Positions 1 through 53,000 of a stretch of 64,000 nt of DNA are shown here, piece after piece. Position numbers and translations under genes: made by a program. The stretch spans positions 124,001 through 188,000 of the forward strand of contig JAQOXP010000051.1 in the NCBI GenBank assembly GCA_037013685.1. The letters run 5' to 3'. The stretch comes from Acridotheres tristis. Taxonomy: Eukaryota > Chordata > Aves > Passeriformes > Sturnidae. Each line of letters starts with the position of its first letter. Position 1 is the first letter of the stretch. The notes beneath the pieces were generated by a model. The model was given only the letters and a program-made list of their open reading frames with translations, did no database searches and was not told where the DNA came from.

Positions 1-101
1 CAGCGCCACTGGACCTCGCGCAGCTCGGGGCAGTCGGACAGAATCATCTCGAACGTCGTGATGAGCGCGTCGAACTTGTACGCACCTGGGATCAGCCGGC
101 C
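1..101 (-). CDS. CHD8: CHD8 coding exon 13 (truncated by window edge)
   Basis: Encodes GRLIPGAYKFDALITTFEMI and LSDCPELREVQWRC, which directly precedes the DEAH box in CHD8. Acceptor ctgcag at 107-102. This exon start and its acceptor reappear three times in the upstream intron. Confidence 0.96.
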
Positions 102-3100
102 CTGCAGGTGAGAGACAGGTAAGGCACAGGTGAGACACAGCGTCACTGATCTGTGTGCACCTGGGATCAGCCGGCCCTGCAGGTGAGAGACAGGTAAGGC
201 ACAGGTGAGATGGCATCACCCTGAATGTCACTGATCTGTGTGCACCTGGGATCAGCCAGCCCTGCAGGTGACACAGGTGAGATACAGGTGAGACACAGTG
301 TCACTGATCTGTGTGCACCTGGGATCAGCCGGCCCTGCAGGTGGCACAGGTGAGATGGGATCACCCCAAAGGCAGCAATGAGCACGAATAATCTGTGCAC
401 ACCTGGCACTGGCTACACCTGTGGGGGCCGTGGTACCAGATACTAGATGCATGTACAGGTACGTACAGGTGTACAACTCATACAGGTATGTACAGGTGCG
501 TAACTCCTAACCCATACAGGTGCGTCACAGGTAGGTACAGATCCATAAACTGTTATAATATTCTATGAGCCATACAGGTGTGCATAGGTGTATAACCCAT
601 GCACGGGTGTCTGAGCATCAGGTGTGTGTGTGTCCAGGTGTGCCCAGGTGTATAACCCATTCTAACCCATACAGGTGTGCACAGGTGAGCTCACCTTGCT
701 GTCCTTGCAGTACATCTCGTACTGCTGGATCATCTGCCGGGAGGCCAGGCTGCCGTGGTACACGATGGTGTTCAGGTGTGTCCAGGTGCTGAACTCGCGC
801 TCCCAGTTGGCGATGGTGCTCAGGGGTGCGATGACCAGGTAAGGGCCGCGCACGCCGGCGCCGTGCACCTCCTGCAGGAACGCGATCGACTGGATCGTCT
901 TCCCCAGCCCCATCTCGTCCGCCAGGATGCAGTTCTGCCTGAGGGACAGGTGAGCACAGGTGAGGCACAGGTGAGCTACAGGTGAGGTGAGGCTGGAGCA
1001 GGTAAGGGACACCCGGGACAGGTGAGGCACGGATGAGGAGAAAAGGGAACGAGTAACGTGCACCTGGGGCAGGTAATGGACACCTGAGACAGATAATACA
1101 CGCCTGGGAAACATAGTGCACACCTGAGACAGGTAAGGTATAACGGGGATAGGTGAGCACAGGTAAGCGGAATATGGAACAGGTAAGGTGTGCCTGGAAC
1201 AGGCAATGTACATCTAGGTCAGGTAAAAAACACCTAAAACAGGTAATCTACACCTGGTTGTGTTTACTCGTCCCCAGGTGTGATTACCTGTCCCAGGTGC
1301 GCTCACCTGTTGTACCAGTTGAACAGGAGCCAGTTCACGCCCTCCAGCTGATACTCCCGGAGCTGGTTGTGGTTCTTGTACTCGTGGGACGCCTCCAGCT
1401 TCTTCCAGGCGCCGGCCTGGGGGCGTGGCTGCGGACAGGTGAGACAGGTGAGGGACAGGTGAGCCCAGAAACGTTACAGAACCACCCCAAAAACGTTAAA
1501 AATGGAGGCGGAAATAACGAATGGAGCTCAAATGACCCAAAAACGACCCGAGGTGAGCTCAGGTGTGACCAGGTGGGCTCACCTGTGCTGGGACTCCTCC
1601 AGGTGAGACGGGGTCACACCTGGCGGGGGCTGGGGCTCAGCCGGAAGTGGGTGTGGCTCACCCCTACGTGTGTGTGTCTCACCTGTGCAGGTGTGTGTGT
1701 GTGTCTCACCTGTGCAGGTGTGTGTGTGTGTCTCACCTGTGCAGGTATGCGTGTGTGTCACCTGTGCAGGTATTTGTGCCTCACCCATATCTCACCTGTC
1801 CAGGTGTTCATACCTCACCTGTGCAGGTGTGTCTCAAGTGTTTATCTCTCACCTGTGCAGGTGTGTCTCAAGTGTTTATCTCTCACCTATGCAGGTGGGT
1901 GTATCTCACCTATGCAGATGTTCATGTCTCATCTGTGCAGGTGTGTCTCAGGTGTGCGTGTCTCACCTCTGCAGGTGTGTCTGTGTCCCACCTGTGCAGG
2001 TATGTCTCAGGTGTGTGTGTCTCACCTCTGCAGGTGTGTCTGTGTCTCACCTGTGCAGGTGTGTCTGTTTGTGTCTCACCTGTGCAGGTGTGTGTGTGTC
2101 TCACCCGTGCAGGTGTCTGTGTCCCACCTGTGCAGGGGTGTCTCAGGTGTTCGTGTCTCACCTGTGCAGGTGTGTCTCAGGTGTTCGTGTCCCACCTGTG
2201 CAGGTGTGTCTCACCTGTCTCTTGAGCTCGGGGTGCCGTGCCTGGATCCGTTTGAACTCGGCGATTTTGGCCTCGTCCACGTCCTCCTGCAGCTCCCAGG
2301 TGCTGTCCTCGTAGGGCAGCGAGCACCACTTGACCAGGTAATACACCACGGGCTGGGGGAGGGGCAGCACACCTGTCAGGGCTCAGCCTGAGCACCTGGG
2401 AACACCTGGGGCCACGCCCTGAACACCTGGGGCCACGCCCTGAACACCTGGGAACACCTGGGGCCACACCCTGAACACCTGGGAATACCTGGGACCACGC
2501 CCTGAACACCTGGGGCCACACCCTGAACACCTGGGAACACCTGGGGCCACGCCCTGAACACCTGGGAACACCTGGGGCCACGCCCTGAACACCTGGGGCC
2601 ACACCCTGAACACCTGGGAACACCTGGGGCCACGCCCTGAACACCTGGGGCCTTTTTCCCACCCCAAAAATCCCCAATTTTGGGATTTTCCCCACCCAAA
2701 AATCCCCAATTTTTGTTTTCTTCCCGTCCCCGGAATTCCCAATTTCAGGATTTCCCCACCCCAAAAATCCCCAATTTTGGGATTTTCCCACCCAAAAATA
2801 TCCCAAATTTGGGGATTTTCCCATCCCAAAAATCCCCAATTTTGTGATTTTTTCCATCCCAAATCCCCCAATTTTGGGATTTTCCCATCCCCAAAATCCC
2901 CAATTTTTGCTTTTTTCCCATCCCAGAATCCCCAATTTCAGGTTTTTCCCTCCCCAAAAATCCCCAATTTCGGGATTTTCCCATCCCCAGAATTCCAGAA
3001 TTTCGGGTTTTTCCCTCCCCAAATCCCCCAATTTTGGGATTTTCCCATCCCAAAAATCCCCAATTTCAGGTTTTTCCCACCCCAAAAATCCCCAATTTTT

Positions 3101-50000: not shown

Positions 50001-53000
50001 AATAGCGGAAATCCCCTCAGGAAATGGCAAGAACCAGAAATCCCCTCACAAAATGGCGGAAATCCCTCTCAGGAAATGGCTGGAAATAGAAACTCCCTCA
50101 CAAAATGGTGGAAATCCCCTCAGAAAAGGGCGGGAAACTGAAATTCCCTCATGAAATGGCAGAAATCGCCCTCAGAAAATGGCGGGAAACTGAAACTCAC
50201 TCACAAAATGGCGGAAATCCCCTCACAAAATGGCGGAAACCCCCTCATAAAACGGCGGGAAACGCCTCAGAAATTTTTCGGCACAATCCCCCCAAACAAA
50301 AACAGCGACAACTAAACAAACCACCGCCAAAAAATATAAAAAAAAAAATCCAAAAAAGTATCACAAAAACCTGAAGAGGAGGCCAGCGCGGCTTACCTGC
50401 GGGGGGAAGAGGCGGTCGGCGCCGGCGTCGGGCGCGCCGCGGGGCAGCTCCGGCGCCGGGGAACGCTCGCGGGGCCGCGGGCGGCTGGGGCTGCCGTGAG
50501 GCGGCGTGGCGGCCGCGCACGTGTCGATCTCGTAGTGCACGTACTTGCAGGTGTCCATGTGGAAACAGGTGTTGAGGAAGGAGCAGTCGCCCAGGGACTC
50601 GTCCGTGTGCTTGTTGATGATGCGGCTGCGGTGAGGAAAAATAAATAATATGGCGAGTTTTTTTTTGGGGGGGAGATAATGATATTTTCTAGTTAAAAAA
50701 ACGGGATTTTTTGAGGGAGAAATGGGATTTTTTTTTGGAGGAAAACAGTATTTTATGAGGGGAGACATAGAATTTTTTGTGGGAGAAAAATGCTATTTTT
50801 TGAGGGGTAAGTAACATTTCATAGAGAAAAATATTAAGATTTTTTGCAGGAGAAAAATGGGATTTTTTTGGAGGAAAATGGTATTTTACAGGAGGAAAAA
50901 TGTTTTTTTTTTACGGGAGAAAAATGGAATTTTTGGGGGGAAAAATGATATTTTATAACGAAAAAAGGGATTTTTGGGGGGAAAAATGGGATTTTTTGCG
51001 GGAGAAAAATGGGATTTTTGGGGGGGGGAAATGAGATTTTTTAACGAAAAAAATGGGATTTTTGGGGGGAGAAATGAGATTTTTTTTGGAGAAAAATGGT
51101 ATTTTACAGGGGGAAAAATGGCTTTTCTTGCGGGAGAAAAATGGAAATTTTGGGGGGAAAACGGGATTATGGGGGAAGAAACGGGATTTTTTGAAGGTGA
51201 AAAAAAAAGGGATTTTTTAGGGGAACAATAGGATTTCTAGGGGAAAAAAATGGGATTTTCTGGGGAGTTGAGGGGGTTGCTAAAGCCCAAGCTGACCTCC
51301 CCAAAACTCTTAGGGGAACACCCTAAACTGCAGGTGAGCACCTCAAACAGCAGGTGAACCCCCAAATCCCAAATAAACTCTCCAAAAACCTGGGTTAAAT
51401 GCCCAAAAGCCCAACCGGAAGTGGAATTTCCATCATGGCCGCTCGGCGCCTGAGGCCTTGACGCGTTCCTCCTTGGCGCCACAAATAAATACCCCAAAAA
51501 TTCCAATTAAAACCCCCAAAATTTGTGTTCAAACCCCCCAAAATCCTGACCGGAAGTGGAGTTTCCGGCATGGCCGCTCGGCGCCCGAGGCCTTGACGCA
51601 TTCCTCCTTGGTGCCGTGGTCGCAGAACTCCTGCACCTGGGCGCGGCCCCGCGAGCGGAACTTCTCCACGATCGACTGCTCCTTGGCCGTCGTGGTGTTG
51701 AGCAGCTCCAGGATCTCCTGGCTCACCTGGGCGCAGGTGAGGCACACGGGCTCGGCCCCGCCCACCTCGAAGCTCCGCCCACCTCGAAGCTCCACCCACT
51801 TCCTGAAAGCTCCGCCTATCTCAAAGCTCCACCCACCCCGTGCTCCTCCCACCTCAAAGCTCCGCCCCACATCCTTAAAGCTCCGCCCACCAAGCCCCAC
51901 CCACCTCCTTAAAGCTCCGCCCACCTCCTTAAAGCTCCATTTTAAAGCTCCAGCCACTAAAAGCTCCGCCCACCTTAAAGCTCCACCCCTTTTCTAAAGG
52001 CCCCGCCCTGCTCCCTAAAGCTCCTCCCATCTCCTTAAGGCCCCACCCACAACCTTGAGGCCACACCCACGCCCCTTAAGCTCCACCCACCACCTTCGGC
52101 CGCCACCCGCCATCTTGAAACCTCGCCATCTCCAAATGGCGCCATTTTGAAACCCCGCCATCTTGAAACCCGCCATCTTGAAACCCCACCATCTTAAAAC
52201 CCCGCCATCTTGAAACCCCATCTTGAAACTTCGCCATCATAAAATGGCGCCATTTTGAAACCCCGCCACCTTGAAACGCCGCCATCTTGAAACGCCGCCA
52301 TCTTGAAACCCGCCATTTTAACCCACCCCTGAAACTCTGACCCCGCCCACACCCCCAAACCCCCCATTTTCCCCCCCCTCACCTTCTTGCTCTGCTGCTC
52401 CTTGGTGCTCTGCTGGCTCAGCAAACTCTCGATCTCCAGGTCCACGTCCGACGCCGCCGCCCGCCGGCACCGCTTGGCCTCCTTCCCCTCCCCCGCCCCG
52501 CCCGCCCCTCCCCCCGGCCCCGCCCCCCCCAGCGGCCCCGCCCCCGCCGGCTCCGCCCGGCCACGCCCCGCCGTCACCACGCCCGTCATGGCCGACAGCT
52601 TGGAGTGGTCGGCGCAGGTGACCAAGGTGGGGCCGTCGTGCAGCAGCCCCCGGCGCACCTCGATCAGCTCCTGCGCCGCAAACTTGTGCAGGAGGCTCTC
52701 GACGGCCTGCAGGGTCACCTGGGAGTCACCCTGGGGGGGAGACGGGCACACCTGAGCACACCTGGGTGCTCCTGGGATGCACCTGGGTACACCAGGGAAC
52801 ACCTGGGTACACCTGGGGAACACCTGGATACACCTGGGATACACCTGGGTACACCTGGGGAACACCTGGATACACCTGGGATACACCTAGGACACACCTG
52901 GGCACACCTGGAATACACCTGTGTATACCGGGGTGCACCTGGGATACACCTTGGTACACCTAGGTACACCAGGGCACACCTGGAATACACCTGGGTACAC

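What the first reader, a model, noticed from the sequence alone, without database searches (positions are those of the whole stretch)
1..52000. Exon edges with their splice sites are repeatedly duplicated into the adjacent introns of three neighbouring genes
At least nine exon boundaries have copies of 15-90 exonic bases plus the splice site in the flanking intron: CHD8 exon 13 acceptor (3 copies), exon 3 donor (2) and exon 4 donor (about 12); TOX4 exon 3 donor (at least 4), exon 4 acceptor (2), exon 4 donor (1), exon 5 donor (7) and exon 8 donor (1); METTL3 exon 8 donor (2) and exon 4 donor (1). This suggests that the satellite arrays grow from exon-intron junctions, which could multiply decoy splice sites and seed exon gain. 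I know of no named system like it; that is a limit of my knowledge.
Basis: partly seen in the sequence, partly recalled or inferred. Interest (0 to 1): 0.88.

Follow-up and report, generated by a model that had tools for sequence, protein, structure and literature searches.

The report
Exon ends duplicated into bird introns
On what is likely a tiny songbird 'dot' chromosome, the ends of many exons, usually with their splice sites, have been copied into the neighbouring introns; this matches the published 'exon stuttering' of chickens, and the copies are likely unselected by-products of tandem duplication rather than new exons.

Summary
Copies are same-strand and lie in adjacent introns: 23 sense proximal BLAST hits of 30 bits or more, against 0 antisense, 0 in distal introns and 2 in 20 shuffles together. 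Beyond the window CHD8 is richer: 11 of 18 exons examined have copies, against 0 of 23 distinct exons of its ohnologs in the same genome, where tandem repeats cover 0-1% instead of 77%. The phenomenon has a name: 'exon stuttering', Hron et al. 2026, in chicken. This is a new member, likely in a starling-family songbird. Best explanation: tandem duplications span a junction, the copy falls in the intron, and selection keeps one site coding. Sequence differences fit unselected copies beside a selected exon (35 of 69 synonymous; model 50%), and all 16 decoy splice sites tested would bring a stop codon. No exon gain was seen: for five edges looked for, no bird protein among 240 METTL3/TOX4 relatives repeats one.

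The parts
82..343 (-).
1..101 (-). CHD8 e14, 5' part of the exon (source of the acceptor copies)
12459..12832 (-).
12128..12389 (-). two copies of the CHD8 e4 donor edge (69 and 83 exonic nt, 99-100% identical)
26960..27187 (+). TOX4 e3, source exon
27534..28368 (+). four long copies of the TOX4 e3 donor edge (38-51 exonic nt) at 27534, 27978, 28153, 28319; donor GT lost in the first and last
30024..30262 (+). two 80-nt copies (100% identical to the exon) of the TOX4 e4 acceptor edge (30024-30103, 30183-30262), period 159
30342..30647 (+). TOX4 e4, source exon
31077..31111 (+). one copy of the TOX4 e4 donor edge (35 nt, 100%)
32967..33268 (+). TOX4 e5 (HMG box exon), source exon
33366..34517 (+). 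seven copies of the TOX4 e5 donor edge (47-55 exonic nt), spacing 144-206 nt; donors at 33413, 33588, 33753, 33941, 34127, 34333, 34518
39445..39479 (+). one copy of the TOX4 e8 donor edge (22 exonic nt, 2 mismatches; source exon 38959-39134)
47314..47502 (-). two copies of the METTL3 e8 donor edge; one has a stop codon, one a frameshift (source exon 47641-47749)
51416..51476 (-). one copy of the METTL3 e4 donor edge (61 nt, 92%, one stop codon; source exon 51551-51726)
1..16860 (-). CHD8, exons 2-14 (13 modelled exons; the gene continues outside the window)
24656..41404 (+). TOX4, 9 exons
43921..54584 (-). METTL3, 11 exons, coding sequence of 1755 nt open to the stop

Best explanation
The exon-edge copies match the published 'exon stuttering' of bird dot chromosomes, and they likely arise when a tandem duplication spans an exon-intron junction and leaves an unselected copy of the exon end, with its splice site, in the intron. 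Shown: the copies are direct, local and nearly all border-anchored, and none was found at the CHD8-ohnolog exons examined in the same genome. Inferred: duplications hit this repeat-dense chromosome often and more or less at random. One that falls inside an exon would be removed, while one that spans a junction is tolerated as long as the first donor, or the last acceptor, is the one spliced. Copies would then be amplified and reshuffled by unequal exchange or conversion, and would drift neutrally as decoys. Which DNA lesion starts the duplication (slippage at G4 or hairpin structure, polymerase theta repair, meiotic misalignment) is not settled here.
For: Window: 23 sense proximal hits of at least 30 bits, 0 antisense, 0 distal, 2 in 20 shuffles; 8 of 59 edges against 0 of 59 in other introns. 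Extension C50:84001-124000: 55 further copies (hits of at least 18 nt and 30 bits), all 55 sense; 52 of 55 end within 4 nt of the mapped exon end, one more spans the border (its mapped end ran into the intron), two fall 12 and 24 nt short; 11 of 18 exons examined have copies (3 of these 18 also lie wholly or partly in the window). Ohnolog exons: 0 of 23 distinct exons (recounted). Tandem-repeat cover 77% in the window and 77% in C50:64001-144000 (which overlaps the window by 20 kb), against 0-1.1% at the ohnologs. Neutral copies: 35 of 69 unique exon-copy differences are synonymous; 33% would be expected if every change fell on a free copy (p = 0.0006), 50% if half fell on a fully constrained exon. 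Some copies carry stops or frameshifts. Exchange among copies: four-gamete conflicts among the 8 TOX4 e5 units within about 30 nt. All 16 decoys tested give in-frame stops. Published precedent: Hron et al. 2026 (abstract, sections 7 and 9, first part of section 8, and found passages).
Against: Two window hits are interior, not border-anchored (METTL3 e2, 33 nt, 44 nt from the border, 42.1 bits; TOX4 e7, proline-rich, 32 bits), and two extension copies fall 12 and 24 nt short. As whole distributions, edges do not outscore interior windows (p = 0.67). Identity does not fall clearly with distance from the exon in 4 of 5 families tested, and the fifth is p = 0.054, so simple serial export from the exon is not shown. 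The exonic part of the TOX4 e5 units is more alike (95.6%) than their intronic part (83% without gaps), and on its own 5 of its 7 unique changes are synonymous, which might hint at constraint or conversion in that one family. The 50% model assumes equal times and full constraint. Recurrent mutation could also give the four-gamete conflicts. No reads, population data or second individual were available.
Confidence: 0.84

Rival explanations
1. Junction-targeted duplication: something about the exon-intron border itself (transcription, R-loops or co-transcriptional splicing, GC contrast) starts the duplications, so that arrays truly grow from junctions rather than being tolerated there.
For: Edge copies are frequent: 11 of 18 CHD8 exons examined, and several arrays cross a border by only 3-8 exonic nt.
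Against: 50 of 59 window edges lack copies although introns are mostly tandem repeat. Donor and acceptor edges are both used: 7 of 29 donors and 2 of 30 acceptors in the window (Fisher p = 0.08), but 7 of 16 donors and 8 of 15 acceptors in the extension (counted), so no bias remains. Selection against interior duplications gives the same pattern without targeting.
Confidence: 0.1
2. Functional reservoir: the copies are kept as alternative splice sites, regulatory decoys or seeds of new exons.
For: All seven TOX4 e5 copies keep a GT donor, by the textbook matrix not weaker than the real one; the exonic part of these copies is unusually alike.
Against: All 16 decoys tested bring stops; substitution pattern as for free copies; for five edges looked for, no repeated edge in bird proteins among 240 relatives; no sense-strand excess of donor-like sites overall (78 against 164).
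Confidence: 0.04
3. Assembly artefact from long-read consensus in repeats.
For: Frame breaks in C-runs of CHD8 e2 and of TOX4 e5 and e7 suggest consensus errors here.
Against: Copies differ from each other by substitutions and unit length, occur at many exons of one contig and at 0 of 23 ohnolog exons. In chicken PHF8, raw nanopore reads verified the same structure (Hron et al.).
Confidence: 0.02

Closest known systems
Exon stuttering / sequence stuttering on chicken dot chromosomes (Hron et al. 2026, Genome Biol Evol, PMC12954441; abstract, sections 7 and 9, first part of section 8 and passages read)
   Same: Direct tandem copies of the lateral part of an exon with its splice site in the adjacent intron; source at the exon border; 20-187 nt exonic, 1-44 copies in chicken, 20-93 nt and 1-17 copies per edge in my hits; absent from ohnologs elsewhere; introns packed with tandem repeats.
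   Different: Another bird, likely a passerine; by the paper's bit-score cut (above 42.1) 6 of 30 window introns have copies against 190 of 5,572 chicken dot introns, but this window was picked for the feature. Length polymorphism not testable here. The main text does not mention CHD8 or METTL3; its list of 115 genes is in a supplement I could not read.
[quoted passage not shown] abstract read)
   Same: A tandem duplication that crosses an exon-intron boundary and copies splice signals.
   Different: There a new spliced intron arose; here no new intron or exon is shown, and use of the 16 decoys tested would bring stop codons.
Ordinary minisatellite / tandem-repeat expansion
   Same: Imperfect head-to-tail units of tens to hundreds of bases, most of them purely intronic here.
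   Different: Units that include coding sequence and a splice site.

Membership tests
Exon stuttering (Hron et al. 2026) | One or more direct tandem copies of part of a coding exon in the adjacent intron | tested here: met
   23 sense proximal hits, 0 antisense, 0 distal; 55 more in the extension, all sense
Exon stuttering (Hron et al. 2026) | Source at the exon border (over 90% within 1 base in chicken) | tested here: met
   Window: 17 of 23 exactly at the border, 4 within 14 nt, 2 interior, a lower share than in chicken; extension: 46 of 55 exactly at the mapped exon end, 52 of 55 within 4 nt
Exon stuttering (Hron et al. 2026) | Absent from ohnologs on non-dot chromosomes | tested here: met
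   0 of 23 distinct exons at three CHD ohnolog loci (C3, C16, C25); tandem-repeat cover 0-1.1%. TOX ohnologs not tested: tool busy
Exon stuttering (Hron et al. 2026) | Location on a dot chromosome | tested here: inconclusive
   Contig C50 is 922,987 bp, repeat-dense in part (77% over 64001-144000, 23% over 188001-228000); no karyotype or whole-chromosome model
Exon stuttering (Hron et al. 2026) | Coding sequence left intact | tested here: inconclusive
   METTL3 is open over 1755 nt; CHD8 e2 and TOX4 e5 and e7 have frame breaks in C-runs
Exon stuttering (Hron et al. 2026) | Intron length varies among individuals | not testable with these tools
   One assembly only
Intron or exon gain by tandem duplication | A new intron or exon is spliced in mRNA | tested here: inconclusive
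   No RNA; all 16 decoys tested give stops; for five edges looked for, no bird protein among 240 METTL3/TOX4 relatives repeats one

The most novel reading that the evidence does not exclude
Exon-intron junctions on bird dot chromosomes are active duplication origins: a process tied to transcription or splicing repeatedly exports exon ends with their splice sites into introns, in songbirds and fowl independently, so that a rising load of decoy splice sites helps drive the gene loss typical of these chromosomes.
Probability: 0.08. Interest if true: 0.85.

Novelty: new member of a known kind. Interest (0 to 1): 0.45.

Why it matters
It carries a phenomenon described in detail for chicken in 2026 to what is likely a songbird, with a same-genome ohnolog control and a test of selection on the copies that I did not see in the parts of that paper I read. 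That points to a property shared by bird dot chromosomes rather than a chicken oddity, and makes a practical warning: gene predictors on these contigs can mistake exon-edge copies for exons. The copies are also fossils of the exon, useful for asking how tandem duplication works on these chromosomes.

Tried and rejected
Donor bias: 7 of 29 donors against 2 of 30 acceptors in the window looked suggestive (Fisher p = 0.08); the extension gave 7 of 16 and 8 of 15, so I dropped it. Constraint on the copies: the raw synonymous excess (35 of 69 against 24% uniform, p = 2e-6) is accounted for once mutation spectrum, CpG and a constrained exon lineage are allowed for. Serial export from the exon: no consistent identity gradient. 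Decoy-site load: no sense-strand excess over all introns; many of those introns have weak real donors, so that cut is low. Use of copies as exons: none seen in proteins. In-frame coding arrays as a mark of selection: 15 of 36 exon arrays have a period divisible by 3, against 183 of 473 arrays in all, so no enrichment. Control count: one search gave 0 of 27 ohnolog exons, but two C3 loci overlap; distinct exons are 23. Breakpoint microhomology: looked at by eye in a few cases, not resolved, not claimed. No fold or RNA tools were used.
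Full report
What is there. The window is 77% tandem repeat by TRF. It holds part of CHD8 (minus strand; the gene continues beyond the window), TOX4 (plus) and METTL3 (minus), in the gene order known for human 14q11.2 (recalled). I modelled 33 exons and 30 introns from tblastn with recalled human proteins and GT-AG anchors. The METTL3 coding sequence is open over 1755 nt, and its closest relative among the listed 120 of 2,623 hits is Acridotheres tristis at 97%, followed by other passerines; so the source is likely a starling-family bird, which is an inference. 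The window is C50:124001-188000 of a 1.04 Gb assembly in 85 contigs. C50 is 922,987 bp long, a small repeat-dense contig as would be expected of a dot chromosome or part of one; published chicken dot chromosomes are put at about 4 Mb (Huang et al. 2023, PMC9974502, passages).

Is the observation right? Yes. BLAST of each exon against introns gave 23 sense hits of at least 30 bits in flanking introns, none antisense there, none in distal introns of the same gene, one in another gene, and two in 20 dinucleotide shuffles together. Seventeen of 23 end exactly at the border and four within 14 nt; METTL3 e2 (44 nt away) and TOX4 e7 (414 nt away, proline-rich) are exceptions. As whole distributions, edges do not outscore interior windows (p = 0.67), because 50 of 59 edges score below 17; the effect is confined to a minority of edges, in which it is very strong.

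Two examples. TOX4 intron 3 ends with three 159-nt units, each holding the acceptor and the first 80 nt of exon 4; only the last continues into the exon. TOX4 exon 5 is followed by seven further copies of its last 47-55 nt, each with a donor GT, at spacings of 144-206 nt. Variants are distributed among the eight units so that several site pairs, one of them 29 nt apart within the exonic part, fail the four-gamete test, which suggests exchange or conversion between units, or recurrent mutation.

Beyond the window. I read C50:84001-124000, where CHD8 continues. Of 18 CHD8 exons examined there (three lie wholly or partly in the window), 11 have edge copies of at least 18 nt and 30 bits: 55 copies beyond those already counted, all sense. 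Forty-six of 55 end exactly at the mapped exon end and 52 within 4 nt; of the other three, one spans the border because its mapped end ran into the intron, and two fall 12 and 24 nt short. One exon (e18) has 17 donor copies, many at 42-nt spacing, and e14 has seven copies of about 57 nt, five of them identical to the exon. Some CHD8 exons were missed by the exon finder (one seen was not kept), so 18 is not the full number. The same pipeline on the ohnolog loci C3, C16 and C25 found copies at none of the exons; one search counted 27, but two C3 loci overlap, and the distinct exons are 8, 7 and 8, that is 0 of 23. Tandem repeats cover 0-1.1% there. That is the same comparison Hron et al. made with PHF8 and PHF2.

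Do the copies do anything? Using any of 16 decoys tested would bring an in-frame stop. Donor-like sites at least as strong as the intron's own donor number 78 on the sense strand and 164 on the antisense strand over the 30 introns, and 2 against 6 at a fixed high cut (textbook matrix, recalled), so the arrays do not add sense donors overall, though they do in some stuttered introns such as TOX4 intron 5 (9 against 1). I looked for five edge peptides repeated within 240 METTL3 and TOX4 relatives: no bird protein has one twice; one fish protein has two HMG edges. Of 69 unique exon-copy differences in 15 families, 35 are synonymous. If all changes sat on unconstrained copies, 33% would be expected from spectrum- and CpG-matched placement (p = 0.0006); if half sat on a fully constrained exon, 50%. 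The simplest reading is free copies beside a selected exon. The model's assumptions (equal times, full constraint, unique changes independent) are rough.

Mechanism. The best-supported account is frequent tandem duplication on this chromosome, filtered by selection: interior exon duplications are lost, junction-spanning ones are tolerated because the first donor or last acceptor still makes the right mRNA, and the copies then amplify and decay. The duplication step and the reason this chromosome is so prone to it are inferred; Hron et al. discuss replication stress with G4 structure, or meiotic conversion. Junction-targeted duplication remains possible but is not needed.

What is known. Hron et al. 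2026 (PMC12954441; abstract, sections 7 and 9, the first part of section 8, and passages read) describe this in chicken: 115 genes, 236 introns, 1,345 confident hits, 190 of the introns on dot chromosomes, the source within one base of the border in over 90%, and state that it copies splice sites and creates potential alternative transcripts. They also mention local repeat expansions in some other birds. A search for 'exon stuttering' or 'sequence stuttering' found only that paper. A search for zebra finch, dot chromosomes, minisatellite, intron and tandem repeat listed four papers, and their titles and abstract beginnings held no songbird account of exon-edge copies; that is a limited search. 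The potato intron-gain case (PMC4974935, abstract) is the closest mechanism with a spliced outcome.

Verdict. A true and striking pattern, already named in print in February 2026; what I add is the likely songbird host, the CHD8 ohnolog control and the neutrality test.

Noticed in passing
window about 16400-16480 (CHD8 e2), 32967-33010 (TOX4 e5), about 37041-37320 (TOX4 e7): Reading frames break within runs of C in otherwise conserved exons; either consensus errors in homopolymers or true indels.
   Followed up: partly
window 17000-24600: No RAB2B match between CHD8 and TOX4, where human has RAB2B (gene order and query recalled); possibly one more dot-chromosome gene loss.
   Followed up: partly
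window about 57645-57800, - strand; about 58830-58945, - strand: Zinc-finger and glutamine-rich reading frames that look like SALL2, the next gene in human order (by eye and recall).
   Followed up: no
window 7017-8768, 5022-6592, 35122-37020: Some introns carry many donor-like sites on the antisense strand (65, 26 and 23 as strong as that intron's own, weak donor in CHD8 introns 6 and 8 and TOX4 intron 6).
   Followed up: no
window 8833-8897 (CHD8 e6), 14633-14662 (CHD8 e3): Short tandem arrays with periods of 18 and 9 nt inside coding exons, so repeats also grow in coding sequence where tolerated; no overall enrichment for periods divisible by 3.
   Followed up: partly
window about 53226-53260 (METTL3 intron 2, - strand): A 33-nt, 91% copy of an interior part of METTL3 e2, 44 nt from the border: an exception to the border rule.
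   Followed up: partly
proteins P0018, P0166, P0123: Predicted isoforms of METTL3 (Agelaius tricolor) and TOX4 (Ammospiza maritima, Corvus moneduloides) seem to read from an exon into intron-like sequence; possibly gene-prediction errors on such introns.
   Followed up: no
G000:C50:188001-228000 (L039-L042): Tandem-repeat cover drops to 23% just beyond the window, against 77% in the window and before it.
   Followed up: no
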